Of a stretch of DNA of 41,852 bases, positions 3-38,251 are shown one piece after another (within the stretch, counting starts at the first letter, position 1; each line of letters begins with the position of its first letter). This DNA is from Roseofilum halophilum BLCC-M91 (lineage in GTDB: Bacteria; Cyanobacteriota; Cyanobacteriia; Cyanobacteriales; Desertifilaceae): positions 1 to 41,852 of the forward strand of contig NZ_JAQPOK010000146.1 of the NCBI RefSeq assembly GCF_030068445.1, read 5' to 3'. The notes under the pieces are model-generated. The model did not search any database. It was given only the letters and a program-made list of their open reading frames with translations, and was not told the origin of the DNA. The translations under genes were made by a program, and so were the position numbers.

Positions 3-1214
3 ATGAGAGCGCGATACCAATATCGAATCTATCCAACCCAGCGCCAGACACAAAAACTTGCCCAGTTGTTTGGCTGTTGTCGCGTTGTGTGGAATGATGC
101 TTTGACTAGAGTTAAATCAACCCCATCAGGAGAAAAGTGGCTGAGTAACTCAGAACTACAAAAACAGGTAATCACTCAAGCTAAAAAGACTCCTGAACGG
201 CATTGGCTATCTGATGTTTCAAGTGTTCCTTTACAGCAGTCTGTGCGAGATTTAGGCGTAGCCTTCTCTAATTTTTTCAATAGCCGCTCAGGTAAAAGGA
301 AAGGCAAAAGAGTGGGGTTCCCTAGACTCAAGAAACGTTCTAGTAGCCAATCAGCTCGGTTTGTCAAGACTGGATTCTCACTCAAAGGCAACAAACTTGA
401 GTTAGCTAAGTTAGGTCGATTTAAGGTGAAGTGGTCAAGACCTCTCCCTTCTACACCGAGTTCTGTCACAATCACCAAAAACACTTCTGGTCAATATCAT
501 GCCAGTTTTGTTATTGAGATAGATTCAATAGACATTGAGTCGATTTATCCATCAGTCGGGGTTGACTTAGGGATAAGAACCTTTGCTCACCTCAGTACCG
601 GGGAAAAGATAGAATCACCAGACTACAGTAAGATTACCCGCAAAATCAGGCGAATGCAGCGAAAGTTATCTCGCCAAATCAAAGGGTCTAATAGACGACA
701 CCAGACTAGACTCAATCTAGCTAAACTTCACCTGAAACTAGCAAGCACTCGCAAAGATTTCCTACACAAAATAACGACTCGGTTGATTCACGAAAACCAA
801 GTGGTCTGCCTAGAAGACTTGAATGTGTCAGGAATGGTCAAGAACCGGAAGTTAGCTAGAGTTATTAGTGAGCAAGGTTGGGGTAACTTCCGAACTTTTT
901 GTGAAGCTAAGGCTCAAACGATCAACGATAGAGAAGTTAATGTTATCAGTCGTTGGGAACCAACATCTCAGGCTTGTTCAGAGTGCGGCTATAAATGGGG
1001 CAAAATAGACTTATCTATTCGTTCCGTTGTTTGTCTTAATTGCGGAACTGAACATGATAGAGATGAGAATGCTGCCAAAAACATAGAAAAAGTCGGGGTA
1101 GGGCATACCCACGACTCTAAATGGATAAAGAACGGGCATAAGACCAGGGTTTCTGGCAATCCGATAGCTTTGTCAAACCAACCGTCAGTTAAGCGGCTTA
1201 GTCTGTTTGATTAG
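3..1214 (+). CDS. tnpB: TnpB, RNA-guided nuclease of an IS200/IS605-type element
   Basis: TnpB proteins are transposon-encoded nucleases guided by an RNA made from the element's own right end. This 403-residue protein has the family layout: a basic N-terminal domain beginning RYQYRIYPT, then a split RuvC fold. The catalytic set looks complete: Asp188 in VGVDLG, Glu271 in CLEDLN and Asp354 in HDRDENAAKN. A zinc ribbon lies between the last two (Cys325, Cys328, Cys344, Cys347). Length and residue spacing match active TnpB proteins. No tnpA (Y1 transposase) follows, and nothing can be said about the left side because the window starts two bases before the ATG. The start at position 3 fits the family N-terminus. 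The gene lies directly upstream of the lasso-peptide genes on the same strand. Identification is firm; activity is inferred. Confidence 0.93.
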   Translation: MRARYQYRIYPTQRQTQKLAQLFGCCRVVWNDALTRVKSTPSGEKWLSNSELQKQVITQAKKTPERHWLSDVSSVPLQQSVRDLGVAFSNFFNSRSGKRKGKRVGFPRLKKRSSSQSARFVKTGFSLKGNKLELAKLGRFKVKWSRPLPSTPSSVTITKNTSGQYHASFVIEIDSIDIESIYPSVGVDLGIRTFAHLSTGEKIESPDYSKITRKIRRMQRKLSRQIKGSNRRHQTRLNLAKLHLKLASTRKDFLHKITTRLIHENQVVCLEDLNVSGMVKNRKLARVISEQGWGNFRTFCEAKAQTINDREVNVISRWEPTSQACSECGYKWGKIDLSIRSVVCLNCGTEHDRDENAAKNIEKVGVGHTHDSKWIKNGHKTRVSGNPIALSNQPSVKRLSLFD

Positions 1215-1457: not shown

Positions 1458-1769
1458 ATGACTTACCCCAAAGCTGAGGTGAACATTTCTATTTCTAATC
1501 AACAAAACATCACATTAGCTCCAGATGTCCTGGTTCAGGAACTCTCTGGAGAGTCGGTATTGCTCAATTTAAACAGTGAGGAATACTTCGGTTTGGATGA
1601 GGTGGGTTCGCGGATGTTATCCGTGTTGACGGGTTCTGCTTCGATTCAAGAGGCGAGCGATCGCCTCTTAGAGGAGTATGAGGTAGAACCGGAAAAACTG
1701 CACCAGGATTTAATGGAATTGATTGAAAAGATGGTCGATCAGGGCTTGGTTACTGTGAGTTCTGCCTAA
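1458..1769 (+). CDS. PqqD-family protein, lasso-peptide B1 (leader recognition element)
   Basis: This 103-residue protein is a stand-alone PqqD-like winged-helix domain, the RiPP recognition element that binds a precursor's leader peptide and presents it to the processing enzymes. Visible family traits are the segment from about residue 20 with APDVLVQELSGESVLLNLNS, then EEYFGLDEVGSRML, a helix with SIQEASDRLLEEY, and a C-terminal helix ending EKMVDQGLVTV. The length is normal for discrete lasso B1 proteins. It is the first gene of the cluster and is separated from the cyclase gene by 211 bases containing a promoter of its own. In lasso systems B1 works with the B2 peptidase, which is not visible here. 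Family assignment is strong; the lasso role follows from the neighbours. Confidence 0.88.
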   Translation: MTYPKAEVNISISNQQNITLAPDVLVQELSGESVLLNLNSEEYFGLDEVGSRMLSVLTGSASIQEASDRLLEEYEVEPEKLHQDLMELIEKMVDQGLVTVSSA

Positions 1770-1889
1770 AAGCGGCTTCAGGGATCGGGGGCGATCGGCA
1801 AATTTCTTTTCAACGCTGAATAAAAATGAGTCAGGTAAACCTTTCAGTTGTGCTATAAGTACACTGTGGAAAAAAATAAGTAAAATCAG

Positions 1890-1919
1890 TTTACAGTCGA
1901 GCTTAAGGTAGAGTATAAT
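1890..1919 (+). promoter_or_regulatory. Promoter of the cyclase-precursor operon
   Basis: TTTACA (1890-1895) and TATAAT (1914-1919, a perfect -10) are 18 bases apart, predicting a transcript start near 1926 and a leader of about 60 bases. Inside that leader lies a 13-base palindrome, GGGTAATTTACCC (1940-1952), which could be an operator but has no other support. The promoter suggests that C, the precursor and the following genes can be transcribed apart from B1. Confidence 0.6.
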
Positions 1920-1989
1920 CAGCTCGTTTTAAGCGACCAGGGTAATTTACCCATTACTCCGTCTAAACACCAGATTTGAGGTGAAGAGA

Positions 1990-3861
1990 GTGAGCGGAAT
2001 CGTAGGAATCGTCAATGCCGATCGGGCCCCGGTTGACCGGGAACTGTTGGCACGGATGACAGGATATATGACGTTCCGGGGGCCGGATGTCCAGAGAATT
2101 TGGGCGGAGGGTTCTGTCGGGTTTGGCCATACCCTGTTGCGGACGACTGATGAATCGGCGAACGAAACCCAGCCTCTAACGGTAGATCGACGGGTATGGA
2201 TTGTAGCGGATGCACGGGTAGATGGTCGCAGGGAGTTAATCCAAAGTCTTCAAGACCGAGGAGAAGCGGTTGACTTCAATACTCCCGATCCGAATCTGAT
2301 CCTCCATGCCTATCTGGTTTGGGGTATCGATTGTCTGGATCGCTTGATTGGGGATTTTGCCTTCGCCATCTGGGATGAGCCAGAACAGCGTTTGTTTTGC
2401 GCGAGAGACCATTTTGGGGTAAAACCGTTTTTCTACGCTAATTTGGGCAAGGAGTTGGTGCTGAGTAATACGCTCAATTGTGTGAGATTGCATCCGTCTG
2501 TATCGGATAAACTTAACGATTTGGCGATCGCCGACTTTTTGCTATTCGGCTATAATCAGGAAGTGGATACCAGCGCCTTTGCTGATATTCAACGCCTGCC
2601 TGCTGCCCATCGGTTAATCTGGACTCCAGAGAGCTTTAAGGTGGAGAGATACTGGACATTGCCCACGGATGGCTATATCCGGTATAAACGGGATGAAGAG
2701 TATGTAGAGCATTTTTTGGAACTAATGCGGTTAGCAGTCGGCGATCGACTGAGAACCAATAAAGTCGCAGTTTACATGAGTGGAGGATTAGATTCTACCA
2801 GTGTAACGGCGATCGCCAAAGAACTCCTCACCAAATCTTACCCCACCTACGACCTCAGAGCCTACACCACCGTCTTCGACCGTCTCCTTCCCGATGAAGA
2901 GCGCTACTACTCCGGTTTAGTCGCCGAACATTTGGATATTCCCATCCACTACCAAGTCGCCGACGACTTTGAGGTATACAAAGGGATTGAAGAGATAGAA
3001 GGGTGTACACCTGAACCCACCTTAATTCCTTTAGCGCATCCACCTCAAGAGCAAAAAAAGCTCATTGCTTCTCATAGTCAAATTGTTTTAAGCGGCCAAG
3101 GAGGAGATCCAGCTTTTTATTCCCAAGGAGCCTATTTTTATGTTAAACACTTATTGACAACCCGGCAACTTCCATGTTTGCTTAAAACTTTAACTAAGTA
3201 TGCAATCGACCAAGGTAAATTCCCCCAACCGGGTATTCGTTCTAGAGTTAAGCAATGGCTCAAACTACCATCGAATCAGCCTAATTATCCTTCTTGGATT
3301 CAACCTGATTTCACAGTCAATCTCAATTTAGAAGACCGGTGGAAACAGAAGTACATGGAGGGTCAATTGGAGCATCCTTCTCGTCCTGAAGCCTATAGTA
3401 GTCTTAGAAACTCTTGCTGGCCTGATTTATTTGAGCAGTATGATTCTGGAATCAGTGGTTGTCTTGTAGAACAGAGATATCCCTATTTTGATATCCGTTT
3501 AATTCATTATCTACTGGCAATTCCCCCCATCCCTTGGTTTCTCCATAAGAACATACTCCGTACAGCTATGAAGGAAATATTACCAGAAGCAGTAAGGCGA
3601 AGACCGAAGTCTCCATTATGTGGCGATCCACTCAGCTTGCGGGTTCAGCAACCGGTCATGAAATGGATTGATAACTTTCAAGTTAATCCACAATTATATA
3701 ACTATGTTAACCCTAAAGCCATTCCCCAACTATGCGGAATGAAAACAAGCAGTAGTGAAGTATGGATTAACTTACACCCTTTGAGCTTAAACTACTGGTT
3801 AGACCATTCACAATCCCCTAAACTTGAACCTGACAAGGAGAAAAGCTATGCCCTTATCTAA
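1990..3861 (+). CDS. Asparagine synthetase-like lasso-peptide cyclase (C protein)
   Basis: Lasso C proteins use ATP to adenylate an Asp/Glu side chain of the precursor and join it to the N-terminal amine of the core, closing the macrolactam ring. The protein has an N-terminal class II glutaminase-like fold (about residues 1-215) and a C-terminal synthetase domain with the PP-loop MSGGLDSTSV near residue 265. I chose the GTG at 1990 because it gives MSGIVGIV: true asparagine synthetases start MCG, and replacement of the catalytic Cys by Ser fits lasso cyclases that have no glutaminase activity. A start at 1981 would add three residues. The gene end overlaps the precursor ATG by 14 bases, suggesting coupled translation. 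Base composition drops to AT-rich from about 3040 onward, inside the synthetase domain. Confidence 0.88.
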   Translation: MSGIVGIVNADRAPVDRELLARMTGYMTFRGPDVQRIWAEGSVGFGHTLLRTTDESANETQPLTVDRRVWIVADARVDGRRELIQSLQDRGEAVDFNTPDPNLILHAYLVWGIDCLDRLIGDFAFAIWDEPEQRLFCARDHFGVKPFFYANLGKELVLSNTLNCVRLHPSVSDKLNDLAIADFLLFGYNQEVDTSAFADIQRLPAAHRLIWTPESFKVERYWTLPTDGYIRYKRDEEYVEHFLELMRLAVGDRLRTNKVAVYMSGGLDSTSVTAIAKELLTKSYPTYDLRAYTTVFDRLLPDEERYYSGLVAEHLDIPIHYQVADDFEVYKGIEEIEGCTPEPTLIPLAHPPQEQKKLIASHSQIVLSGQGGDPAFYSQGAYFYVKHLLTTRQLPCLLKTLTKYAIDQGKFPQPGIRSRVKQWLKLPSNQPNYPSWIQPDFTVNLNLEDRWKQKYMEGQLEHPSRPEAYSSLRNSCWPDLFEQYDSGISGCLVEQRYPYFDIRLIHYLLAIPPIPWFLHKNILRTAMKEILPEAVRRRPKSPLCGDPLSLRVQQPVMKWIDNFQVNPQLYNYVNPKAIPQLCGMKTSSSEVWINLHPLSLNYWLDHSQSPKLEPDKEKSYALI

Positions 3862-4003
3862 TAATCAAAACTCAGTGAAGAAAACTTACCAAAAACCCCA
3901 ACTCTCAGTTTACGGTGATATTCGCTGTTTAACTCAAGCTGGAAACAGTAACCAAATTCCAGATAACTTTAGTCCTGGACTGAAAACTGCTATTGGGATG
4001 TAA
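3848..4003 (+). CDS. Lasso-peptide precursor (A peptide)
   Basis: This 51-residue gene is short enough to be missed by standard calling. It has a good ribosome site (AAGGAG at 3835-3840, seven bases before ATG). Residues 14-29 fit the lasso leader signature YxxPxLxxxGxxxxxT: Tyr14, Pro17, Leu19, Gly23 and Thr29. With Thr at the second-last leader position, the leader ends at Gln30. The core then starts with the ring segment AGNSNQIPD (residues 31-39), followed by the tail NFSPGLKTAIGM (40-51). Asp39 is core position 9, so an Ala1-Asp9 nine-membered-residue ring is predicted; Gly2-Asp9 is the alternative if cleavage is one residue later. The position after the cyclase and before modification enzymes supports the call. 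The mature product is inferred. Confidence 0.85.
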   Translation: MPLSNNQNSVKKTYQKPQLSVYGDIRCLTQAGNSNQIPDNFSPGLKTAIGM

Positions 4004-4105
4004 TCTTTTTAGTGTTTTTGTATCAACCTTCTCCAAGGATCGAGTCTCAGTCAGCTCAATACTGATGTTTCCTCCTACACTCAACTCTATTAAATCCATC
4101 AGTTC

Positions 4106-5092
4106 TTGCTATTCAGTTACCTAGTCTTTGGTCTTCACATACAATCAAGCCAGGCAATTCCTGGCTTAATTCCTTCATCTGTCTTGTCATCCATAGATTT
4201 AACGGTTGCACTCAATATCAGTTTATCTGAAAAAGAAGAGTTATTCCAACGTCCTATAGTACCGATTTATGAGAGTGACGAAAGAGATGAACAAGGAAAA
4301 CCTTGCTTACAAGTCTATAAAGCTCAAGAAACCGGTTATTTTCAACTCAGTTATACTGATGGGAGTCAATTTTTTATTAACCCAGATGGAACTCAAGTTT
4401 GGACAACTTGTCCAGATCATTTGAGTATAGAAGATACAGCTACCTACCTTTTAGGCCCTGTTCTTGGGTTCGTTCTCCGTTTACGAGGAATAACTTGTCT
4501 CCATGCGAGTGCTATTGCTGTTGGGCAAGAAGCGATCGCATTTGTGGGTGACTCTGGTGCTGGTAAATCAACAACTGCCGCAGCTTTTGCCAAGCTAGGT
4601 TATCCGATCTTATCAGATGATATTGTAGCTCTCGTTCCCCAAGACAATCATTTTTTTATTCAACCTGCGTACCCCCGTATTCGTTTGTGGTCTTCTTCAG
4701 TCAAGATATTGTTTGAATCTCCTGATGCCTTACCTAGACTTGTTCCTACTAATCCAACGTGGGATAAACGATATCTGCATCTCAATGGTAGAGAGTATCA
4801 CTTTCAAAATCAGCCTCTACCTCTAACCCAAATTTATTTTCTAAGTCCAAGAGATCCTCAGATAGAATCCCCGTATCTACAAAAAATTTCTCCTGCTTCA
4901 TCTCTCATAAAATTGATAAAGCATACCTATGCTAATGTCTTATTGGACTCTAAGATGCGAGCAAATGAATTTTCTCTATTAAGTCAGTTAGTAAGAGCCG
5001 TGTCCTGCTCAGAAATAGTCCCTAGCTCAAATCCTAAGCAAATACAAAAGCTTTGTGAGGTAATTCTTAATAATTTTAGCAAAGCTAGATAA
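4106..5092 (+). CDS. HPr kinase-like protein of the lasso cluster
   Basis: The 328-residue protein carries an HPr-kinase-type P-loop, GDSGAGKST (148-156), followed by the paired acidic residues Asp171-Asp172 in LSDDIVAL and preceded by CLHASA (131-136), as in HprK C-terminal domains. Related kinases in lasso clusters phosphorylate the precursor peptide. The start is TTG at 4106: an in-frame stop at 4091 leaves no room upstream, and the resulting N-terminus LFSYLVFGLHIQS matches the way this family usually begins. No strong ribosome site is seen. It lies 102 bases after the precursor and touches the oxygenase gene. The DNA is AT-rich compared with the genes on either side. The substrate is inferred; the precursor here lacks the C-terminal Ser modified in described systems. 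Confidence 0.82.
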   Translation: MLFSYLVFGLHIQSSQAIPGLIPSSVLSSIDLTVALNISLSEKEELFQRPIVPIYESDERDEQGKPCLQVYKAQETGYFQLSYTDGSQFFINPDGTQVWTTCPDHLSIEDTATYLLGPVLGFVLRLRGITCLHASAIAVGQEAIAFVGDSGAGKSTTAAAFAKLGYPILSDDIVALVPQDNHFFIQPAYPRIRLWSSSVKILFESPDALPRLVPTNPTWDKRYLHLNGREYHFQNQPLPLTQIYFLSPRDPQIESPYLQKISPASSLIKLIKHTYANVLLDSKMRANEFSLLSQLVRAVSCSEIVPSSNPKQIQKLCEVILNNFSKAR

Positions 5093-5098
5093 TTGTGT

Positions 5099-5683
5099 AT
5101 GTCTAATTTAAAGTTAATTCATCATCTCGGTGTTTTTGTTCAAGAAGATTTTTTAAGTGTAGATCAATGTATCAACATAGTATCTGAATTAGAAAAATTA
5201 GAAGTTACTCCAGTAGGAGTAGTAGGAGAAGACGGACTGTATCAAATAAATCAGGAAGTGCGTAAAGTTCATCAAATAGATGCTTCGCAATCATCAATTC
5301 AACTGGTACAAAAAAAAATATTGACCGTCAAAGATAAATTAGAAGACTATTTCAGTCTACAACTAGACAGCAATGAGTCTCTTCAAGTTTTAAGATATAA
5401 AGAGGGAGATTTTTATTTACCTCATGTAGATACTAATCATGGGGATCATCAACCTTTTCACATAAAAAAAAGAAAAACATCTGTAGTGATTTTTCTCAAC
5501 AATTTATATCAAGGCGGTGCTTTAACGTTCTATGGGTTAATTCAAAAAAATAACTGGAAAAGTTATGGCTTTCCAGTGGATGGGAAGCCTGGCTTACTAT
5601 TAGCATTTTCTTCTGAATTAATCCATGAAGTAGAACCGGTTGTTCAAGGAACAAGATATACGATTGTAAGTTGGTTTAATTAA
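5099..5683 (+). CDS. 2-oxoglutarate/Fe(II) oxygenase, prolyl 4-hydroxylase type
   Basis: The protein has the metal triad of the family: His and Asp in LPHVDTNHG, a distal His in SELIHEV, and Arg in GTRYTIVSW for the 2-oxoglutarate carboxylate (residues 109, 111, 176 and 186 from this start). The middle segment VVIFLNNLYQGGALTFYG is the usual double-stranded beta-helix region of prolyl 4-hydroxylase-like enzymes. I chose ATG at 5099; a TTG at 5093 directly after the kinase stop would add two residues. The gene is packed against the kinase and, four bases on, the methyltransferase, so one transcript is likely. The likely substrate is the lasso precursor or product, which has two Pro, one ring Asp and several Asn; this is inference. 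The gene is AT-rich: two sampled 60-base lines (from 5281 and 5521) contain 18 and 19 G/C. Confidence 0.82.
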   Translation: MSNLKLIHHLGVFVQEDFLSVDQCINIVSELEKLEVTPVGVVGEDGLYQINQEVRKVHQIDASQSSIQLVQKKILTVKDKLEDYFSLQLDSNESLQVLRYKEGDFYLPHVDTNHGDHQPFHIKKRKTSVVIFLNNLYQGGALTFYGLIQKNNWKSYGFPVDGKPGLLLAFSSELIHEVEPVVQGTRYTIVSWFN

Positions 5684-5687
5684 AATT

Positions 5688-6836
5688 ATGTATAGTGTAT
5701 CGGGTTATGGCTCCATGATCGGCGATCGCGGCCGCATGGAAGCCTATACGCAAGCTCTGAAACAATCCATTACCCCCGGTTGTGTTGTCCTCGATATTGG
5801 CACGGGAACCGGTATATTTGCCCTGCTTGCCTGTCAATTCGGAGCCAAGAAAGTCTACGCCATTGAAACAAATCCGGCGATCGAAGTGGCAAAACAGGCG
5901 GCAGTTGCGAATGGCTATAGCGATAAAATTGAATTTATCCAAGATTTATCCACTAAAGTAGAATTACCCGAATTAGCCGATGTCATCATCTCCGACTTGC
6001 GGGGAATTTTACCTTTATTTCAGCAACATATTGGCTCTTTAGCTGACGCTAGAACGCGATTATTACGTCCTGGAGGCGTGTTAATTCCTCAACAGGATAA
6101 CATCTGGGTGAGTGTAGTAGAAGCGCCCAATTGGTGGAATAGAATTAACGATCCTTGGGATAAATATTGTTATGGCTTTAACATGGATGGGGCGAAAAAG
6201 ATCGTCAATAATGTTTGGGGAAAAGGTTGGGTAACACCGTCTCAATTATTGGCACAACCGCAACTTTGGGCAACATTGGATTATCAAACTATTGAGAATC
6301 CGAATGTGGGAAATCAAATGCTCTTTAAACCGTCGCGCAGTGGCACTGCCCATGGGTTGAGTGTATGGTTTGATGCCACCCTGATTGATGGCGTTGGCTT
6401 CTCCACGGCTCCAGGAATGCCGGAATTGGTGTATGGGACGGCGTTTTTCCCCTTTTTAGAGCCGGTTGAGATAGGTTTGGGCGATACGATTTCTGTAAAT
6501 TTACAAGCTAATTTGGTAAATAGTAGCTATATCTTCCGTTGGGATACTCAGGTGTTAGAGCAAGGGAAGGAAAGCCAGTGTAAAGCTCAATTTAAGCAGT
6601 CTACGTTTTTTGCCGAATCTCTTTCTCCTCAGCAGTTGCGGAAGCAGGCAGGGAATTTTGTACCCAAGTTGAATCAAGATGGTAAGATTGCGCAAGTGGT
6701 TTTAGCGTCTATGGGGCAAGGAAAATCGGTGAGCGAGATTGCAGGAGTGTTAATGGAGCAATTTCCAGAGGCGTTTTCTACTCCGAAAGAGGCTCTAACA
6801 CGGGTGGGGCAATTCTCAACAGTGTACAGTGAATAG
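5688..6836 (+). CDS. PRMT-like SAM methyltransferase with PqqD-like C-terminal segment
   Basis: This is a class I SAM-dependent methyltransferase of 382 residues. Motif I is VVLDIGTGTGIFALLA (about 33-48), the acidic post-I residue is in YAIETNP (Glu60), and SDLRGILP (102-109) occupies the place of the double-E loop of protein arginine methyltransferases but has only one acidic residue. The remaining central part resembles the PRMT beta-barrel. Residues about 325-380 (MGQGKSVSEIAGVLMEQF, then EALTRVGQFS) resemble the helices of a PqqD-like winged-helix domain, which could let the enzyme grip a leader peptide. It follows the oxygenase by four bases, and its last codons overlap the transporter's possible start. 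Methylation of the lasso peptide is the likely role; the target residue cannot be told from sequence. Confidence 0.78.
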   Translation: MYSVSGYGSMIGDRGRMEAYTQALKQSITPGCVVLDIGTGTGIFALLACQFGAKKVYAIETNPAIEVAKQAAVANGYSDKIEFIQDLSTKVELPELADVIISDLRGILPLFQQHIGSLADARTRLLRPGGVLIPQQDNIWVSVVEAPNWWNRINDPWDKYCYGFNMDGAKKIVNNVWGKGWVTPSQLLAQPQLWATLDYQTIENPNVGNQMLFKPSRSGTAHGLSVWFDATLIDGVGFSTAPGMPELVYGTAFFPFLEPVEIGLGDTISVNLQANLVNSSYIFRWDTQVLEQGKESQCKAQFKQSTFFAESLSPQQLRKQAGNFVPKLNQDGKIAQVVLASMGQGKSVSEIAGVLMEQFPEAFSTPKEALTRVGQFSTVYSE

Positions 6837-6837
6837 G

Positions 6838-8646
6838 ATGATGGCGGCGATCGCCTCTCGGTTGCAGCGCTTGCTCTATCTGAGAAAAGCGGCACAGTTA
6901 GTTTGGCGGAGTACCCCCAAATTAACCCTGGCGAATATTGTCCTCGTCTTTCTGCAATCGGTGCTACCCCTAGCTTCCCTCTACCTCACCAAACTGATTA
7001 TCGATCGCATCACTGAAGGCATTTCCACTCCCCAAACCTCCCTACAACCGGTACTCCTGCTAATTGCCATTGCTGCATTGGTGGCGATTATTGGTGATGG
7101 ACTGCGATCCTTAGCCGGATGGGTAAGCGAAGCGCAATCTCAAATCGTCACCGACTACGTGCAGAATCTGCTTCATAGCAAGTCCATTGAAGTGGATTTA
7201 GAATACTACGAAAACGCTCAATACTATGATTTTCTCCATCAGGCACAAACTGAGGCATCTTATCGTCCTACTGTCATTGTAAATCGATTTATCCAATTAG
7301 GCAATAGTAGTTTATCCTTAATTGGGATAGGACTGCTTCTGTTTTCCTTTGATTGGGCGATCGCCCTCATCCTCATTATCGCCGCTATCCCCGTTTTTCT
7401 CGTCCGGCTCCGATTTTCCCAACAGCTTTATCGGCAATGGCAACAATGGACTCCCCAAGAGCGCATGGCCCATTATTATAGTACCTTAATCACCCAAGTC
7501 GATCATGCCAAAGAAATCCGCTTATTTGACTTAGGCGAACTATTTGGGCGACGGTTTAATACCCTGCGTCAAGCCATTCGTCAGCAAAGAATATCCCTAT
7601 CTGCTCGTCGTTCCTTTGCCGAAAGTATTACCCAAAGTAGTGCCACCCTAGCCGTTTTTACCGCCTTTGCACTGATGGCAGATCGGGCATTAATGGGTGC
7701 AATTACCATTGGCTCTTTAGTGATGTACTATCAAGCCTTTCAACGGGGACAAACCTTACTGCGAGAAAGTTTAAGTTACTTGGCTTCTTTGTATGAAAAT
7801 AGTTTATTTATCGCCAACTTTTACCAATTTCTCGACCTCAAGCCGATGATTGTTGAACCCATAAAACCAGCTCGACTTCCGGCAACTCTTGAAGGCAGAA
7901 TCGAATTCGATCGCGTCAGTTTTTCCTATCCCCGAAGTGAACGCTCGGTTCTCGAACAGCTTAAGTTTACCATTGAACCCGGAGAAACCATCGCCATTGT
8001 GGGGGAAAATGGAGCCGGAAAAACCACCTTAATTAAACTATTATGTCGCCTCTACGATCCGACGGCTGGTGCAATTCGCTTAGATGGGATCGATCTGCGA
8101 GATTTATCTCCCAGTGAAATCAGAACAAATATTAGTATTGTCTTTCAAGATTATGCCCATTATCATTTAACGGTGCAAGAGAATATTGGTGTCGGAGATA
8201 TTCAGAACTGGGATAATTTAGCCCCAATTCAGCAGGCGGCTCAATGGGCCAAAATTGAGCCGACAATTTTGAAACTTCCCCAAGGATATGATACCATTTT
8301 AGGGAAACAATTTATTAATGGAGAAGAACTGAGTATTGGGGAATGGCAGAAAGTGGCGATCGCCCGATCTTTTCTGCGCCAAAATCACCCCATTTTAATC
8401 TTAGATGAACCCACCAGCGCCTTAGATCCGCAAGCGGAAGCAGAAATCTTAGAACAGTTGAATCAATTGACGCAAAAGCGAACGTCTATCATCATTAGTC
8501 ATCGTCTTTCTACGGTGAAATTTGCTGACCGAATTTTAGTTTTAAAAGAGGGGAAAATGGTGGAAACTGGAAATCACAGACAGTTAATGGAGAAATCGGG
8601 GATTTATGCCACACTCTTTAATACGCAAGCTCACTATTATCGATAA
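6838..8646 (+). CDS. ABC transporter, probable lasso-peptide exporter (D protein)
   Basis: This is a half-transporter of about 600 residues with an N-terminal block of about six membrane helices (roughly residues 25-330) and a C-terminal ATPase domain. Seen motifs are Walker A GENGAGKTT, a variant signature LSIGEWQKVAIARS instead of LSGGQ, Walker B ILILDEPTSALD and an H-loop in IIISHRLS. There is no N-terminal C39 peptidase, so it does not cut leaders itself. In lasso clusters such proteins export the mature peptide and give self-immunity. The start is uncertain: GTG at 6829 overlaps the methyltransferase stop, while ATG at 6838 or 6841 follows it. It is most likely co-transcribed with the methyltransferase. 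Its G+C content is visibly higher than that of the kinase and oxygenase genes. Confidence 0.88.
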   Translation: MMAAIASRLQRLLYLRKAAQLVWRSTPKLTLANIVLVFLQSVLPLASLYLTKLIIDRITEGISTPQTSLQPVLLLIAIAALVAIIGDGLRSLAGWVSEAQSQIVTDYVQNLLHSKSIEVDLEYYENAQYYDFLHQAQTEASYRPTVIVNRFIQLGNSSLSLIGIGLLLFSFDWAIALILIIAAIPVFLVRLRFSQQLYRQWQQWTPQERMAHYYSTLITQVDHAKEIRLFDLGELFGRRFNTLRQAIRQQRISLSARRSFAESITQSSATLAVFTAFALMADRALMGAITIGSLVMYYQAFQRGQTLLRESLSYLASLYENSLFIANFYQFLDLKPMIVEPIKPARLPATLEGRIEFDRVSFSYPRSERSVLEQLKFTIEPGETIAIVGENGAGKTTLIKLLCRLYDPTAGAIRLDGIDLRDLSPSEIRTNISIVFQDYAHYHLTVQENIGVGDIQNWDNLAPIQQAAQWAKIEPTILKLPQGYDTILGKQFINGEELSIGEWQKVAIARSFLRQNHPILILDEPTSALDPQAEAEILEQLNQLTQKRTSIIISHRLSTVKFADRILVLKEGKMVETGNHRQLMEKSGIYATLFNTQAHYYR

Positions 8647-8675
8647 ATATTATAACTCTTTTTCTCCTTACAGAG

Positions 8676-8700
8676 GTAGGGTGGGCAGTGCCCACCCTAC
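8676..8700. repeat. 25-base palindromic repeat
   Basis: GTAGGGTGGGC (8676-8686) and GCCCACCCTAC (8690-8700) are perfect 11-base inverted repeats around a 3-base loop. Palindromes of this form are scattered in cyanobacterial genomes. No T-run follows, so a terminator role between the exporter and the next gene is possible but unproven. Confidence 0.75.
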
Positions 8701-8733
8701 TGGGTAGAGGGATATAGGGAGAGGGAATTAACC

Positions 8734-9906
8734 ATGCGTCTTGAACATCAATTAATTTTAAATTGCGCTCGCACGTACCATTCGGGCGCAAATCAAGACA
8801 AAATTCTAGAATTACTTTCCAGAGATTTGGATTGGAATTATATCTTCGATTGGATTAACTATCATGGGTTGATCCCTCTATTTTACTGGACAATCAAAGA
8901 GTTTAAAGATCCTGTCGATCTCGATTTTTTTCAAGTTATCGATCACGAGTTTAAACAAAATGCCTATCGCAACTTATCCCTAACCCAAGAACTGATTAAA
9001 CTTATTCAACTTTTTGAGGCAGAAACAATTCCGGTTTTGGCGTTTAAGGGGCCGGTTTTAGCCCAAGTTGCTTATCAAAATCTGGGATTGAGGCAGTTTA
9101 TTGATTTAGATATTTTAATTCCTCAAGGGTCTGTGAGTCAAGCCTCAAAGATTTTAACTCAACAGGGTTATCTGCCTCAATTTGAGTTTAAGGGATGGCA
9201 AGAAAATCGCTATGCCCAAATTCGCCCGGAGCATAATTTCTATTCTTCAGAAAAAGATCTCAGTATTGATTTGCATTGGTCGTTAATTTCTTCGGCGCTC
9301 TCGTTTCACGAAAATCCCCAATTGATTTGGGAGGATAGGAACTATCAAGATCGAGTAAAATTAGCTAATCAAACGATTCTTACGTTATCGCCAGAAGCGT
9401 TGTTATTATTTTTATGTGTTCATGGGGCGAAACATGATTGGTCTCATTTATCTTGGGTGTGTGATATTGGGGAACTGTTGAATCGACATCAAGATTTAGA
9501 TTGGCAATGGATTGAGGGGCAAGTGGGTCATTTAGGCACGCAAACGATGTTAGAGTTGGGGTTAGGGTTAGCTCACACTTATTTAGATGCGCCAATTCCT
9601 GAAGATTGGCTGAAGAGATTAGAGAATAATCCTAAGATTCAGGAGTTAGGAGAATTAATAGAAGGGCAATGGTTTAAACGTCAATCTGATGAGAGTAGAC
9701 TGAGATTAATGGGGCAAATTTATGTACAAACGATGGATTCAGGGCGCGATCGCCTCTGGTACTGGTTGGACTATGTAGCAACCCCTACCCCCCTAGAGTG
9801 GGAAATCCTCCCCTTGCCCTCCGGGTTGTTTTTCCTCTATTATCCTTTTCGCCTGCTGCGTTTACTCTGGAAATATCGGCCAGACTGGCTCAAGGCTCAA
9901 TCCTGA
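8734..9906 (+). CDS. Nucleotidyltransferase family protein (NTP_transf_5 type) of the lasso cluster
   Basis: The protein (390 residues) fits the uncharacterised nucleotidyltransferase family found beside RiPP and polysaccharide genes. Motifs seen are AFKGPVLA (103-110) and LRQFIDLDILIP (119-130), with the metal-binding pair Asp124 and Asp126 in DLD, then the conserved region SIDLHWSLIS. Such genes recur in lasso clusters that encode an HprK-like kinase, but their role is not established; nucleotidyl transfer onto a peptide is a possibility. It follows the exporter by 87 bases on the same strand and is the last gene of the cluster. Its 3' end overlaps the oppositely oriented GAF gene by 10 bases. 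Confidence 0.75.
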   Translation: MRLEHQLILNCARTYHSGANQDKILELLSRDLDWNYIFDWINYHGLIPLFYWTIKEFKDPVDLDFFQVIDHEFKQNAYRNLSLTQELIKLIQLFEAETIPVLAFKGPVLAQVAYQNLGLRQFIDLDILIPQGSVSQASKILTQQGYLPQFEFKGWQENRYAQIRPEHNFYSSEKDLSIDLHWSLISSALSFHENPQLIWEDRNYQDRVKLANQTILTLSPEALLLFLCVHGAKHDWSHLSWVCDIGELLNRHQDLDWQWIEGQVGHLGTQTMLELGLGLAHTYLDAPIPEDWLKRLENNPKIQELGELIEGQWFKRQSDESRLRLMGQIYVQTMDSGRDRLWYWLDYVATPTPLEWEILPLPSGLFFLYYPFRLLRLLWKYRPDWLKAQS

Positions 9907-15052: not shown

Positions 15053-16177
15053 ATGACAGAACCTCAACCAATGACCATTACCTTGCCGCCCCTGCGGATT
15101 ACGGTAAATAATCAACAACAGGTTAACCTAGAGTGGATGCCCCAAGCTCAAGGTCAGATGCCGCCGAGTCAACCCCAAATTCCAGAGAATTGGAAACGGT
15201 GGATCGCCTTAAATAAGCTGCATAATAAGCCGGAACAGTCGATGATTGAAGCCATGCAAAAACAGGGAGTCGATCCAAATATCGCTCGCCTGGCTATCAA
15301 TCAAGTGATGGCCGAACCCTCCTATAAAATCGGCGAGAATCTGGCCCAACTGCTGCGAAAATTAGAATCGACCCTCGCCATTCAACAGCAACTGGCGGCC
15401 CTTTCATCGAACGGGAACCGAATTGAGCGGCGATCGGGCCTTTCTAGACAAGAATTTCTAGACCGCTATTATGCCACCAATACCCCAGTCATTCTCACCG
15501 ATTTAATGCAAGAGTGGCCAGCCATGAAAACCTGGTCACCCGCATATCTCAAAGAACAATACGGCCGAGTTGAAGTCCAAATCCAAGCCAATCGCAACAG
15601 TAACCCAGAATACGAAGTTGAATGTGAAAAACACCGCAAAACCATCCGCCTGGGGGACTATGCCGATCAAGTCTTGAACGGTGGTGAGAATAATGATTAT
15701 TATATGGTGGCCAATAACCAAAACTTAGAGCGTGAGGAATTAAAAGGACTGCTCGACGATATTATCTTTTTCCCCGAATTCCTCAACCCCGAAGAAACCC
15801 AGAATCGCGTGTTCTTCTGGTTTGGCCCCAGTGGAACCATTACCCCTTTGCACCACGATCCCGTCAACTTAATGATGGCTCAAGTTTATGGACGCAAACG
15901 TTGGCGCTTAATTTCTCCCCAGCAGACTCCCCTACTGTACAACTATGTAGGGGTATTCAGTAAGGTGGATTGCGAAAACCCCGATTATCAGAAATATCCC
16001 CTATTTAAAAATGTGCAGATCGTTGAAGAAGTCTTGCAACCGGGAGACGTGATTTTCGTGCCCGTGGGCTGGTGGCATCAGGTTAAAGCCCTCGATCCCA
16101 GCATTTCCTTATCGTTTACCAATTTTGTTTTTCCCAATTTTTACACTTGGCAAGACCCCAATATTAAGGCGTGGTAA
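15053..16177 (+). CDS. JmjC/cupin-like 2-oxoglutarate/Fe(II) hydroxylase
   Basis: The C-terminal half (about 125-374) is a JmjC-type cupin. It begins SRQEFLDRYYATNTPVILTD and contains TPLHHDP with iron ligands His268 (or 267) and Asp269, Lys283 in GRKRWRLISP as the probable 2-oxoglutarate ligand, and the distal His342 in VPVGWWHQV. Family members hydroxylate proteins or small molecules; the substrate is unknown. The first ~120 residues are not a recognisable domain and include a polar, Gln/Pro-rich stretch. The gene follows the PfkB kinase on the same strand. A role in the upstream lasso cluster is unlikely given the distance. Confidence 0.83.
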   Translation: MTEPQPMTITLPPLRITVNNQQQVNLEWMPQAQGQMPPSQPQIPENWKRWIALNKLHNKPEQSMIEAMQKQGVDPNIARLAINQVMAEPSYKIGENLAQLLRKLESTLAIQQQLAALSSNGNRIERRSGLSRQEFLDRYYATNTPVILTDLMQEWPAMKTWSPAYLKEQYGRVEVQIQANRNSNPEYEVECEKHRKTIRLGDYADQVLNGGENNDYYMVANNQNLEREELKGLLDDIIFFPEFLNPEETQNRVFFWFGPSGTITPLHHDPVNLMMAQVYGRKRWRLISPQQTPLLYNYVGVFSKVDCENPDYQKYPLFKNVQIVEEVLQPGDVIFVPVGWWHQVKALDPSISLSFTNFVFPNFYTWQDPNIKAW

Positions 16178-34574: not shown

Positions 34575-34590
34575 GGTTGGGTATTGGGAG

Positions 34591-34986
34591 ATTGTGCCCT
34601 CTTCCCCCTGCCCCCTTCTCCCACGGGAGACGGGGGTTCAAGTCCCTCTCCTGTGGGAGAGGGATTTAGGGAGAGGGCTTTACCTGGGGGAGATTGTGCC
34701 CTCTTCCCCCTGCCCCCTTCTCCCAGGGGAGACGGGGGTTCAAGTCCCTCTCCCGTGGGAGAGGGATTTAGGGAGAGGGCTTTACCTGGGGGAGATTGTG
34801 CCCTCTTCCCCCTGCCCCCTTCTCCCACGGGAAACGGGGGTTCAAGTCCCTCTCCTCTGGGAGAGGGATTTAGGGAGAGGGCAAATCCGGTTATTGTGCC
34901 CTCTTCCCCCTGCCCCCTTCTCCCACGGGAGATGGGGGTTCAAGTCCCTCTCCTCTGGGAGAGGGATTTAGGGAGAGGGCTTTACC
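34591..34986. repeat. Four-copy tandem array of ~102-base hairpin units
   Basis: Near-identical units start at 34591, 34693, 34795 and 34893 (spacing 102, 102 and 98). Each reads ATTGTGCCCTCTTCCCCC, then a Pro-codon-like C-rich stretch with TCTCCCACGGGAGA variants, then GGGGGTTCAAGTCC, a CCCTCTCC...GGAGAGGG hairpin, and ATTTAGGGAGAGGGC. Inverted repeats join the two ends of the unit (GCCCTCT with AGAGGGC), so each could fold into one long hairpin. The final unit overlaps the pilQ stop codon (34982-34984). Confidence 0.85.
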
Positions 34987-37900
34987 GGTTGGGATAGCGG
35001 AAGCCTCGGTTCCGCAGTTGTTGCTGCACATTGGGGCTGGGGGCGTAGCCATATCCCCAGTTAGCATCGTCCACATCTTGGATGATGTTGGGGGTAACCA
35101 CAATCACCACTTCTGCACGCTCCGATTCTCTATCAGTACGGCGGAACATGCGACCGATGATGGGCAGGTCTCCAAGAATGGGAAGTTTGGAAACAATTTC
35201 CCGCTCTTGGTCTTGGATAACCCCAGCAATTAAGAGAGTTTGACCATCGCGCAGGCGGATTTTACCGGAACTTAGCTCACGCTGAGAAACTAGGGCCACC
35301 TCTTGTACAAAACCATCCACAATGATGCTGTAAGTATCTGTGGGAGTCGATATACGCGGATTAAGGGTCATGGTAATAAACCCATTATCATCAATGCGAT
35401 CGACCGTAATCGGCATCAATAACCCCACATCATCAAACTCGGTGTTAATGGTGGTGGTAGTGCTATTGGCGTTAACGGTGGTTTCTTGTTCCACGTTAAC
35501 GGGGATGCGGTCTGTGAGGTTAATGGTTGAGGTTTCACCCTCTTGAATAGTGAGGGTGGGGTCAGTGAGTATCTTGGCGTTGCCTTCAACAATATTTGCT
35601 TCTAGTTGAGCGAGGAACTGTCGGGGATATTGGAAGACTTGCGGCAGTTGGTAGGCAAGTTGCGCCGCTTGACCCACAATGGCAGGTAAGCCATTAACGG
35701 CTGCTCCGGTAGCGGCGGAAATGAGTTCACCGACAGGGTTACGGAGGGCGGGAATCGTTCCACCTCCTGGAACCAGGTCGGTGATTAACCGGGGGATACC
35801 TTGGGCATCGAAGAATTGAGGAGCCACGGCTAAATCAGCATCAATTAAATCTTGGCCATTGGTTAGGGGTTGAAATTGTCCACCACCTGGAGTTAATTCA
35901 GTGAATAAACGAGGTGTGCCTGTGGTATCGAAGAATCGAGGAGCTGCGTCACCTTGGGTAACTTCGACTAGCCCTTCCGGATTCAGAAGAGGTTGAAAGA
36001 CTCCTCCACCAATAGTCAATTCATTAAAGTTTCTAGGAACTCCACTGACATCAAAAAACACTGGAGATAAATTGCCTGCTGGAGTTAGTCCACCGCCAGC
36101 ATTTGGCAATGGTTCAAATGTTCCATTAGAAACACCAGGGACATTTAATTCACTCAGCAGGCGAGGTGTACCTGTAGAATCTAAGAAATATTCTGCTCCA
36201 GTACCAGCATCAGTAACAATATTTCCATCAGGACTGCGTAGAGGATTAAACTGACCCCCACCAACCGTGAGTTCATTAAAGAGTCTCGGTTGACCTGTTT
36301 CATCAAAGAATCGAGGTGCTCCTGGTCCAGCCTGAATCAAAGCCCCGTTGGGAGTCGTCAGGGCTGGGATTTGTCCCCCGCCCAGTTGCAGCTCACTTAA
36401 TAGTCTGGGTTGTCCATTGGCATCAAAATACCGGTCGGCTTGGGGGGGACTAGCGGCCTCAATCAAGTTATTGCCACTATCCAATAGGGGTTGGAAGGCC
36501 CCCCCATTGGGGCTGAGTTCATTTAAGGTGCGGGGAATGCCATTGCGGTCATAATACAGAGGAGGCGTTCCAGAAGAGGGAGAAACTTGACGACCCGCAG
36601 CACCGGGAATACCGGGGGCAGTTGGGTCAAAGCCAGCCACTCCGGGAGTGGTGGGTAAGCCACCAGGGGAGAAGACGGAACCGGGTTGGTTTTGCCCCAC
36701 GGGAACCAGTTGGCCGGTGGCCGGGTCGCGCACCAGTTGGGTTCCATTGGGGTTAACAAAGGGCTGTACGCCTGAAAGGGGGTTACCGGCAATGGGACGA
36801 CCAAACTGGTTATTACGGGCTTGATCGGCTGAAGGTGGGGTTAAGCGCCCAAAGTTGGCGATGCCTCGCCCCCCATCAACGACGAAGAAGGAGTCTCCAG
36901 AACCGAAGGAAAAACTACTGTTGGAAAATTCTTCAGCGTTTAGGTTAATGTCAATCACTTTGACGTTAACGGAGACTTGGCGGCGACGGAGATCTTGTTG
37001 GGAGAGCAGACCAGTAGCAATTTCTACTTTGCGCGGGTCACCCACCAGGGTAATGGAGTTAAGGCGTTCATCGGCAATGACGGAGAGACCGCGCAGGAGG
37101 AGGGGGCCATTGGCTGCTTCGACGGTGAGGTTTTGAATACTGGTATTGGTTTCTTCTGTTTCCCGTCGGTCTACTCCTGTGCCTTCAACGATGCGTCGGG
37201 TTTCGGTGAGGACTCGTTGATAGTCTGCTCCTTGGGAGGCGAGGAGGGTGGCGGAGCTTTCGGCTTCGGCTTGGTTGAGGCGGAGGGTGCGGGTAATGAC
37301 GGGACTGGATTCTAGGGGCAGGCTAGTGCCCACAAAGATGGTGCGCCCGACGCGGTTGGCTTGCATTCCGCTCAGTTGCAAGACGCTATTAAAAACGTTT
37401 TGCACGGGTTCATTTTCGATGTCTAGGGAAATCGTCCGCCCGGCAACGGAAGTCGCTGCTCCCGCTTGCCCTTCGGGAATGTCGCCCGCGCCGTCGGTGA
37501 AGGCGAGGTTCATGCCCGCAACTCGCGCTAGGAGGGCGAGAACGTCACGCACGGGGGCATCCCGGAGAACGAGACGGGGCACGTTTTCGGAGGAGCCGAG
37601 GTTAATGGTGCGCCCGGATGCGTCGATGGTGGATACGGAGATGTCGCCGAGGGGAGGGGCGATGGCTCTTTGCCGGAAGGGAGGGGCGACACCGGTTCCG
37701 GGGGGTAGGCTGGGGATGCCGTTTTGCAGGCTGGGCAGGGGGACGTTGTTGTAGGGAGCGCCCTGGGCCATCTGTTGAGGGGGGCTTTGGGCGATGGGTC
37801 GGGGGGCGGGGGGGTTGGGGGCGGTATTGGCGCTGGGTTGGGGGGTTTCTTGCTTGAGGGAGAGAATGAAGTTAGAGCCGTCTTGAATGCTGATGCGGCC

Positions 37901-38251
37901 GCTGAGGCTGCCTTGGTTGCCGGTGACGGTGACGCGGATGCTGTTGTTGTCTACGGAGTTGACGCTAACGGAGGCAATGCCGGGTGCGGGGTTGGCTTGC
38001 ATGAATTCGCCGCTAGGGAGGTTGAGCTGCATGTTGGAGATGTTGGCGACCCATTGGTTGCCGCTAGGGACGGCAAAGACTTGGGGGCGATCGCCTTCAG
38101 TTGTGTCTAATACGACTTCAATTCCTCCACTGGTGGGGTTGAGGGAGACGTTGTTGATTCGGGTCGGAGCTGCCCAAGCCGCAGAGTTCGATAGAATTAC
38201 GGCGGCACTTCCGATCAGGGCCCCACTTAGTCCAAAATGATACTTTTTCAT
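34982..38251 (-). CDS. pilQ: Type IV pilus secretin PilQ with AMIN domain and large repeat insert
   Basis: PilQ forms the outer-membrane pore for type IV pili and DNA uptake. From the frame's upstream GTG (38263): a signal peptide (about 5-32, ending SAAWAA), an AMIN domain (about 33-137), a Pro-rich linker, a secretin N-domain (about 228-315), NolW-like parts (322-425), and the secretin beta-domain (about 870-1062) with the family signature VPVNVEQ to VVTPNI. I chose ATG at 38251 because AGGAGA (38255-38260) precedes it and MKKYHFGLSG starts a normal signal peptide. At ~1090 residues it is far longer than usual, owing to a linker and seven ~41-residue repeats (about 569-856). The usual pilMNO genes are not adjacent. 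Confidence 0.93.
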   Translation of the reverse strand: MKKYHFGLSGALIGSAAVILSNSAAWAAPTRINNVSLNPTSGGIEVVLDTTEGDRPQVFAVPSGNQWVANISNMQLNLPSGEFMQANPAPGIASVSVNSVDNNSIRVTVTGNQGSLSGRISIQDGSNFILSLKQETPQPSANTAPNPPAPRPIAQSPPQQMAQGAPYNNVPLPSLQNGIPSLPPGTGVAPPFRQRAIAPPLGDISVSTIDASGRTINLGSSENVPRLVLRDAPVRDVLALLARVAGMNLAFTDGAGDIPEGQAGAATSVAGRTISLDIENEPVQNVFNSVLQLSGMQANRVGRTIFVGTSLPLESSPVITRTLRLNQAEAESSATLLASQGADYQRVLTETRRIVEGTGVDRRETEETNTSIQNLTVEAANGPLLLRGLSVIADERLNSITLVGDPRKVEIATGLLSQQDLRRRQVSVNVKVIDINLNAEEFSNSSFSFGSGDSFFVVDGGRGIANFGRLTPPSADQARNNQFGRPIAGNPLSGVQPFVNPNGTQLVRDPATGQLVPVGQNQPGSVFSPGGLPTTPGVAGFDPTAPGIPGAAGRQVSPSSGTPPLYYDRNGIPRTLNELSPNGGAFQPLLDSGNNLIEAASPPQADRYFDANGQPRLLSELQLGGGQIPALTTPNGALIQAGPGAPRFFDETGQPRLFNELTVGGGQFNPLRSPDGNIVTDAGTGAEYFLDSTGTPRLLSELNVPGVSNGTFEPLPNAGGGLTPAGNLSPVFFDVSGVPRNFNELTIGGGVFQPLLNPEGLVEVTQGDAAPRFFDTTGTPRLFTELTPGGGQFQPLTNGQDLIDADLAVAPQFFDAQGIPRLITDLVPGGGTIPALRNPVGELISAATGAAVNGLPAIVGQAAQLAYQLPQVFQYPRQFLAQLEANIVEGNAKILTDPTLTIQEGETSTINLTDRIPVNVEQETTVNANSTTTTINTEFDDVGLLMPITVDRIDDNGFITMTLNPRISTPTDTYSIIVDGFVQEVALVSQRELSSGKIRLRDGQTLLIAGVIQDQEREIVSKLPILGDLPIIGRMFRRTDRESERAEVVIVVTPNIIQDVDDANWGYGYAPSPNVQQQLRNRGFRYPNR
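35696..36559 (-). repeat. Seven ~41-residue repeats inside PilQ
   Basis: The repeats share the pattern [R/Y/Q]-F-F-D-x-x-G-x-P-R-L-x-x-E-L-x-x-G-G-G-x-F-x-P-L, beginning near residues 570, 611, 651, 692, 736, 777 and 817. They differ enough in sequence to be old rather than recent copies. They are inserted between the N-domains and the pore domain. Confidence 0.85.

What the first reader, a model, noticed from the sequence alone, without database searches (positions are those of the whole stretch)
1458..9906. Lasso-peptide cluster with an unusual set of four tailoring-type genes
Sequence shows, in one direction: a PqqD-like B1, an AsnB-like cyclase, a precursor with the lasso leader signature, an HprK-like kinase, a 2OG/Fe oxygenase, a PRMT-like methyltransferase, an ABC exporter and a nucleotidyltransferase-like protein. 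Kinases, oxygenases or methyltransferases are each known singly in lasso systems. Having all three plus the nucleotidyltransferase in one cyanobacterial cluster would predict a heavily decorated peptide. That this combination is undescribed is my judgement, not a database result.
Basis: partly seen in the sequence, partly recalled or inferred. Interest (0 to 1): 0.85.

Follow-up and report, generated by a model that had tools for sequence, protein, structure and literature searches.

The report
Lasso cluster with distant leader peptidase
A cyanobacterium carries a gene cluster for a knot-shaped, decorated peptide whose processing protease sits elsewhere in the genome and whose product-defining middle part looks swapped between lineages, so such clusters may be missed by rules that expect all genes together and may show nature's way of exchanging knotted peptides.

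Summary
In detail: 1458-9906 encodes a lasso-peptide set (B1, cyclase, precursor, HprK-like kinase, 2OG oxygenase, PRMT-fold methyltransferase, ABC exporter, nucleotidyltransferase-fold protein). The four-enzyme combination is rare, not unique: 2 of 80 cyclase-related loci have it too, one in the same order. Kinase+methyltransferase is common (24 of 80).

(1) No leader peptidase (B2) lies in the cluster; all 6 genus genomes held keep a B2 elsewhere, probably working in trans. (2) From mid-cyclase (~2970) through precursor, kinase and oxygenase to the methyltransferase start (~5688) the DNA is foreign relative to congeners, while the flanks stay about 89% identical to L105. Congener pairs show the same over a shorter stretch, and trees of the two parts reject each other: an exchangeable specificity cassette. 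(3) Precursors beside this kinase subfamily share [K/R][S/T] near the C-terminus (33 of 37; 15 of 15 new ones), so the kinase probably phosphorylates tail Thr17, not a C-terminal Ser. (4) The methyltransferase has the PRMT fold but lacks the double-Glu loop and THW; the core has no Arg.

New variant of a known kind; no product has been seen.

The parts
1458..1769 (+). B1, PqqD-type RiPP recognition element
   Evidence: PF05402 57 bits; the only PqqD match in the genome at E<=0.1; 94% identical to the B1 of a congener
1770..1980 (+). gap where B2 normally sits; holds a -35/-10-like element (1890-1919, 18-nt spacer), TATAAT kept in 5 of 5 aligned genus clusters
   Evidence: promoter-like matches in the scanned region are no more than shuffles give (4 against 4.5); no convincing B2 remnant by tblastn, best E 0.01, short pieces
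1981..3861 (+). C, lasso macrolactam synthetase (cyclase); Ser in place of the AsnB Cys2; SGGLDS at aa 267
2970..5687 (+). exchanged cassette: cyclase from about aa 330 on + precursor + kinase + oxygenase
3848..4003 (+). A, precursor: leader MPLSNNQNSVKKTYQKPQLSVYGDIRCLTQ, core AGNSNQIPDNFSPGLKTAIGM (predicted ring A1-D9, predicted phospho-site T17 of K16-T17)
   Evidence: AAGGAG upstream of the ATG
4106..5092 (+). K, HprK-like peptide kinase (H133, K154, D171, D172)
5093..5683 (+). OX, 2OG/Fe(II) oxygenase, prolyl-4-hydroxylase-like
   Evidence: PF13640; PDB prolyl-4-hydroxylase E 3e-6; among the 6 genus genomes only here in this cluster
5688..6836 (+). MT, PRMT-fold methyltransferase with altered active site
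6829..8646 (+). ABC exporter, MsbA-like half-transporter
8734..9906 (+). NT, PF14907 nucleotidyltransferase-fold protein

Best explanation
This is a lasso-peptide cluster of a K-MT-NT type that recurs in several phyla. B1 binds the leader of the 51-aa precursor (inferred). Before ring closure the kinase phosphorylates Thr17 in the tail motif K16-T17, and the oxygenase and methyltransferase act on the precursor (inferred from motifs and from tested relatives). The leader is cut after Gln(-1), next to Thr(-2), by a B2 protease that is not in the cluster but at an unlinked locus (in trans). The cyclase joins A1 to D9 and the exporter secretes the peptide; the nucleotidyltransferase-like protein probably adds a group to the phosphate, as PsmN does in pseudomycoidin. 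The C-terminal half of the cyclase, the precursor and the kinase (here with the oxygenase) form a cassette exchanged between lineages by recombination, on a conserved backbone of cyclase N-half, methyltransferase, exporter and nucleotidyltransferase. Shown by sequence: gene content, absent local B2, orphan B2 kept in the genus, mosaic structure, conserved tail motif. Inferred: every chemical step and the partnership with the orphan B2.
For: Genes. The genome has one match each for B1, B2 and lasso cyclase. 48 of 55 related loci with B1 just upstream of C have B2 as well. 6 of 6 genus genomes held carry the cyclase, a B2 above the PF13471 cut-off elsewhere, and no B2 in the stretch fetched around this cyclase; in G004 both lie on one contig about 125 kb apart. 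The six B2s keep the Cys, His and Asp positions (sequences; triad recalled); three of six were tested against NF033537, all above cut-off; constraint dN .04-.12, dS .21-.63 among the five orphan B2s. B1 and B2 trees hold the same 7-row group: five cluster B1s or orphan B2s, G003's linked pair, Oscillatoria L017. Cassette: L104 and L105 are 96-98% identical in cyclase aa 1-300, K 99-328, MT and ABC, but 57% in cyclase 360-626 and 52% in K 1-98; synonymous divergence jumps too; AU tests reject each topology with the other data (2.9e-8, 1.5e-5). Tail motif: 33 of 37 cores beside K>=360 bits, shuffle mean 10.7, maximum 19 of 2000 shuffles; all 5 of these cores with a single Ser/Thr have it in the motif; 15 of 15 new precursors.
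Against: No expression, peptide or enzyme data. The window's own B2 lies on a 2.1-kb contig, so its position there is not proven (G004 is the clean case). Inside the shared 7-row group the B1 and B2 trees differ: G003's B1 joins L017's (99/96), its B2 joins the orphans (100/98), and the B2 bootstrap had not settled. Pseudomycoidin is reported to form without leader peptidase (title in a reference list), so B2 may not be needed. The K threshold of 360 bits was chosen after seeing the data; shuffles ignore relatedness, and several of the 15 new precursors look alike. Two further pattern hits in the new close-kinase loci (L157, L161) were dropped as spurious because they lack a lasso leader; L161 thus has no precursor. 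The second half of my written prediction (weak kinases beside C-terminal Ser) failed: 1 of 3 loci with precursors. Four of 37 cores in the K>=360 group lack the motif. Unrelated locus pairs also have a faster-evolving cyclase C-half.
Confidence: 0.68

Rival explanations
1. B2 is simply lost from the pathway, which runs without it or with a general host protease, as reported for pseudomycoidin; the orphan B2 serves something else.
For: No B2 in the cluster; pseudomycoidin title in a reference list; the orphan sits behind a 118-aa gene in 4 genomes (the one scanned is HepT-like); B1 and B2 trees differ in the place of G003.
Against: Window genome has no other lasso cyclase or PqqD match, yet a B2 is kept in 6 of 6 genomes and constrained; both trees hold the same 7-row group; in G003 B1 and B2 sit together away from the cyclase.
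Confidence: 0.22
2. The divergent middle of the cluster reflects fast evolution (relaxed or diversifying selection) of substrate-binding parts, not recombination.
For: Cyclase aa 360-626 and kinase aa 1-98 are less conserved than the other halves in many unrelated pairs as well.
Against: Synonymous differences jump with the same borders (L104-L105 cyclase pS .07-.26 to .40-.68); sharp border near 2970 in four comparisons; reciprocal AU rejection.
Confidence: 0.12
3. The kinase phosphorylates a ring Ser (as BsfK does on Ser3) or another residue, and [K/R][S/T] is recognised by some other enzyme, such as the methyltransferase (Lys methylation).
For: BsfK precedent; window core has S4 and S12; 5 of 7 cores from methyltransferase-positive loci with weak or no K also carry the motif.
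Against: 13 of 16 K>=360 cores from loci without the methyltransferase still carry it; 5 of 5 K>=360 cores with one Ser/Thr have it there.
Confidence: 0.3
4. Decaying or silent cluster with no product.
For: TnpB gene 243 bp upstream; no expression data.
Against: All eight window genes are open; dN below dS in all pairs where dS could be computed, for B1, B2, C, K, MT, ABC and NT across 6 genomes; catalytic residues kept.
Confidence: 0.06

Closest known systems
Pseudomycoidin cluster psm (PsmK kinase, PsmN nucleotidyltransferase)
   Same: HprK-type kinase plus nucleotidyltransferase-annotated protein beside a lasso set; product reported to form without leader peptidase (review passages and reference list)
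   Different: There the kinase acts on a C-terminal Ser; no oxygenase or PRMT-fold enzyme is mentioned in the passages; whether PsmN is PF14907 was not tested
Paeninodin cluster (PadeK/ThcoK)
   Same: HprK-like kinase with the H-K-D-D motif acting on the precursor
   Different: Target is the C-terminal Ser; the window core ends in Met and carries K16-T17 in the tail
Bradymonas bsf cluster (BsfK, BsfN)
   Same: Split B1/B2, kinase, nucleotidyltransferase, ABC; kinase helped by B1
   Different: BsfK acts on ring Ser3; Ile at leader -2; B2 in the cluster
Canucin (CanE) and lassomycin/StspM
   Same: Fe/2OG oxygenase or methyltransferase acting on a lasso precursor
   Different: CanE hydroxylates C-terminal Asp14; StspM was modelled on mitomycin-7-O-methyltransferase and methylates the C-terminal carboxyl
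Roseofilum lasso cluster of Mar Drugs 2023 (PMC9967302)
   Same: Most probably the same genus; RRE, B2 and cyclase reported (passages)
   Different: That cluster has its own B2, as L115/L117/L118 here have; the B2-less window type is not mentioned in the passages I saw

Membership tests
lasso-peptide biosynthetic gene cluster | B1/RRE (PqqD fold) next to cyclase | tested here: met
   PF05402 57 bits
lasso-peptide biosynthetic gene cluster | AsnB-like cyclase without glutaminase Cys2, with SGGLDS | tested here: met
   Ser at the Cys2 column; apart from MCG-type Asn synthetases; NF033535 below its cut-off
lasso-peptide biosynthetic gene cluster | precursor with YxxPxL...G leader, Thr(-2), Asp/Glu at core position 7-9 | tested here: met
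   YQKPQLSVYG, T(-2), D9; NF033528 31.3 bits, cut-off 33
lasso-peptide biosynthetic gene cluster | B2 leader peptidase inside the cluster | tested here: not met
   none in the window cluster; one B2 elsewhere in the genome, above the cut-offs of PF13471 and NF033537
lasso-peptide biosynthetic gene cluster | threaded product | not testable with these tools
   needs expression and MS/NMR
lasso HprK-like tailoring kinases (PadeK/ThcoK type) | conserved His-Lys-Asp-Asp | tested here: met
   H133, K154, D171, D172; each kept in 36 or 37 of 37
lasso HprK-like tailoring kinases (PadeK/ThcoK type) | C-terminal Ser substrate | tested here: not met
   core ends in Met; subfamily shares an internal [K/R][S/T]
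protein arginine methyltransferases | PRMT fold (Rossmann plus beta barrel) | tested here: met
   PRMT7/6/1 by sequence; PRMT2/6/1 by fold, TM about 0.7
protein arginine methyltransferases | double-Glu loop and THW loop | tested here: not met
   first Glu is Asp103 in 24 of 30 (Glu in 3); columns of the second Glu and of the THW His have no residue at 60%; loop names recalled
protein arginine methyltransferases | arginine in the presumed substrate | tested here: not met
   no Arg in the window core; Arg in 8 of 28 MT+ cores
2OG/Fe(II) oxygenases | HxD...H iron triad and a 2OG-binding Arg | tested here: met
   HVD, H of IHEVEP, R of GTRYT read by eye in the sequence (motif recalled); PF13640
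PF14907 nucleotidyltransferase family | profile match, KG...R...DxD motif and fold | tested here: met
   203 bits; K105 G106 R120 D124 D126 invariant in 18 of 18; best fold match LnuA adenylyltransferase E 6.5e-5, the only one under 0.001

The most novel reading that the evidence does not exclude
Natural plug-and-play lasso biosynthesis: lineages of one genus swap a cassette (C-terminal half of the cyclase + precursor + substrate-reading N-terminal part of the kinase, here also an oxygenase) into a fixed backbone, with a leader peptidase supplied in trans. The cyclase C-half and kinase N-part would then be the core-specificity determinants, and the tail Thr would be phosphorylated and extended by the nucleotidyltransferase-fold enzyme, while the PRMT-fold enzyme methylates something other than arginine.
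Probability: 0.35. Interest if true: 0.8.

Novelty: new variant of a known kind. Interest (0 to 1): 0.62.

Why it matters
If true: (1) mining rules that need B2 next to the cyclase would miss lasso clusters. The one genus paper I found reports lasso capacity only in some Roseofilum strains (antiSMASH 6 and PRISM; passages), whereas 6 of 6 genus genomes held here carry this B2-less type; I do not know whether the strains overlap. (2) The natural exchange border at about residue 330 of the cyclase gives a ready hypothesis for where core specificity lies and where chimeric lasso cyclases could be cut. (3) A third kinase target (tail [K/R][S/T], beside C-terminal Ser and ring Ser3) becomes directly testable. 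(4) A PRMT-fold RiPP enzyme with a rebuilt active site is a lead for new methylation chemistry.

Tried and rejected
Rejected: cyclase as a true asparagine synthetase; MT as arginine methyltransferase of the core; uniqueness of the four-enzyme set; core start at Gly with ring G1-D8, because the Thr(-2) rule places A1-D9; B2 remnant in the B1-C gap (tblastn best E 0.01, short pieces); silent cassette copies (all 12 cyclase matches listed at E<=1e-40 in 6 genomes begin at query residue 1-4); a named donor of the window's cassette (nearest kinase outside the genus 51%; oxygenase in 7 of 291 genomes, own included, nearest 41%); linking the oxygenase to a core residue (only three oxygenase-positive cores found). 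I first took the second cyclases of G004 and G005 for broken, from the stop counts; on checking, their reading frames are open (613 and 614 aa) and those stops lie at the frame ends, so I dropped that.

Of 20 close-kinase loci, 5 were already in the set; of 15 new ones, 14 had precursors (15), all with the motif; two spurious pattern hits (L157, L161) were dropped. Middle group: 8 new loci, 7 with precursors, 1 with the motif, 3 ending in Ser. Weak group: 8 new loci, 3 with precursors, none with the motif, 1 ending in Ser, so that half is not supported.

Counting choices: precursors with cores outside 12-40 aa (many Moorena ones) and duplicate cores were dropped, leaving 76; a few of the 48 in the MT- group are probably spurious ORFs. 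MT+ means a match above 150 bits anywhere in the locus. L002, L050 and L025 were left out of the precursor and tree counts because L104, L108 and L116 cover the same contigs. The profiles behind the bit scores were built from these same loci. L036_187 is a Cys-bearing Asn-synthetase-like protein that my cyclase filter let in.

Full report
What is there. The window's first 10 kb carry, on one strand, B1, cyclase, precursor, HprK-like kinase, 2OG/Fe oxygenase, PRMT-fold methyltransferase, ABC exporter and a PF14907 protein. The precursor (3848-4003) overlaps the cyclase's end, has an AAGGAG site, the lasso leader signature and Thr at -2, which sets the core to AGNSNQIPD-NFSPGLKTAIGM with ring A1-D9. 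Contig lengths link congener G001 to Roseofilum acuticapitatum BLCC-M154 (L002) and G005 to the MAG UBA2566 (L050), so the genus is most probably Roseofilum.

How common the set is. So the kinase-methyltransferase pairing is a recurrent type in Cyanobacteria, Acidobacteria, Proteobacteria and others, and the oxygenase is the rare addition. In the cyanobacterial order, 48 of 291 genomes (own genus included) have the kinase at E<=1e-25 and 7 of 291 the oxygenase at E<=1e-15.

Leader peptidase in trans. 48 of 55 related loci with B1 just upstream of C have B2 as well; the seven without include the two congeners L002 and L050. In the window the B1-C gap is 211 bp. All six genus genomes held have the cyclase and a B2 elsewhere. 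In G003 neither B1 nor B2 is beside the cyclase; a linked B1-B2 pair sits on another contig (L113). The B2s keep the Cys, His and Asp positions; the three tested match NF033537 above cut-off. The B2 tree joins five orphans with L113 (100/98), then Oscillatoria L017 (98/91) and Cyanosarcina L011 (99/99); the B1 tree holds the same 7 rows without L011 (95/87), but there L113 pairs with L017 (99/96), so the inner order differs; the B2 bootstrap had not settled. The shared group, constraint and the absence of another lasso cyclase in the window's genome favour a working partner at a distance. A -35/-10-like element in the gap, with TATAAT kept in 5 of 5, may serve the cyclase; the scan finds no excess over shuffles.

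Exchanged cassette. Aligned over the cluster, the window is 0.76-0.97 identical to four congeners up to ~2968 (lowest at the cluster's 5' end and in the B1-C gap), then 0.40-0.69 through the rest of the cyclase, precursor and kinase (the oxygenase has no counterpart), then 0.81-0.97 from the methyltransferase start. Against L105, mismatches are 852 of 1927 inside and 597 of 5237 outside. L104 and L105, 96-98% identical in four backbone blocks, drop to 57% in cyclase 360-626 and 52% in kinase 1-98, with synonymous divergence rising alike. L105's cassette is closer to that of the distant G003 (67%, 66%) than to L104's. Backbone data give (L104,L105) 100/100, cassette data (L105,L106) 99/100; AU tests reject each with the other data. 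The window's cyclase C-half is closest to Argonema L004 (52%), not to congeners (44-47%), so its cassette may come from outside the genus; the AU test leaves that open (p 0.18 for window with L003/L004, 0.82 for window beside its congeners). L107 and L108 share one allele and show no drop. Unrelated pairs also have a faster C-half, so part of the contrast is general.

Kinase target. The kinase has the H-K-D-D residues of lasso kinases (motif from review passages). Known targets are C-terminal Ser, and Ser3 for BsfK. Beside kinases scoring >=360 bits in my profile, 33 of 37 cores have [K/R][S/T] after the ring acid (shuffle mean 10.7, maximum 19 in 2000 shuffles); beside weaker or no kinase without the methyltransferase 4 of 32, with 14 of 32 ending in Ser. 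All five K>=360 cores with a single Ser/Thr have it in the motif. A test written down beforehand held for 15 of 15 new precursors near close kinases, and failed for the weak-kinase half. Thr17 is therefore the best candidate in the window.

Methyltransferase. By sequence (PRMT7 2e-25, PRMT6 5e-25) and fold (pLDDT 89.6; PRMT2/6/1, TM about 0.7) it is PRMT-like, but the guanidinium-binding Glu pair and THW are not kept across 30 homologues, and SDxRG.LPL stands in the loop's place. The window core has no Arg, and only 8 of 28 MT+ cores do. I cannot name its target; Lys16, the C-terminal carboxylate or the phosphate are open, the last two suggested only by the conserved Arg105 (21 of 30), Arg122 (29) and Arg124 (28).

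PF14907 protein. The model (pLDDT 90.7) matches small nucleotidyltransferases (LnuA E 6.5e-5, ANT(2'') 2.6e-3) and, weakly, FKRP (0.03). With the PsmN precedent I expect it to act on the phosphorylated residue. Whether PsmN belongs to PF14907 was not tested.

Literature. Ten paper searches gave listings and abstract starts only; I saw passages of PMC9266682, PMC9967302, PMC10368454 and PMC12670498. None of what I saw describes this combination, a B2 in trans, or natural cassette exchange in a lasso cyclase; the library lacks most subscription papers. That antiSMASH's lasso rule needs B2 is my recollection, not a test, and I do not know whether the strains of PMC9967302 are among the six genomes.

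Noticed in passing
L104, L105, L106, L107, L108 precursors; L004, L005, L011, L015: Nine methyltransferase-positive cores have the ring acid at position 10 if Thr is at -2, one beyond the 7-9 stated in PMC10368454: either a 10-residue ring or cleavage one residue later.
   Followed up: partly
L109-L112 (orphan B2 loci): The orphan B2 lies directly behind a 118-aa gene on the same strand in four genomes; the copy scanned, in L110, is HepT-like (PF01934, 85 bits).
   Followed up: partly
L114, L115 (12-19 kb), L116: A second lasso set without B1/B2 beside it (cyclase, kinase, ABC, NT; in L116 also an oxygenase) in three congeners. Its cores end in Ser, and it may share B1/B2 with another cluster.
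   Followed up: partly
window 3-1214: TnpB of the IS200/IS605 kind, 243 bp upstream of B1.
   Followed up: no
window 34982-38263: Secretin gene (PF00263) whose middle shows repeated units resembling YFDxxGxPRLxxEL, seen by eye.
   Followed up: no
window 34586-34986: Four tandem copies of a 102-bp G+C-rich repeat (92% matches), next to the secretin gene.
   Followed up: no
window 15053-16177: Cupin_8/JmjC-type gene, apart from the cluster.
   Followed up: no
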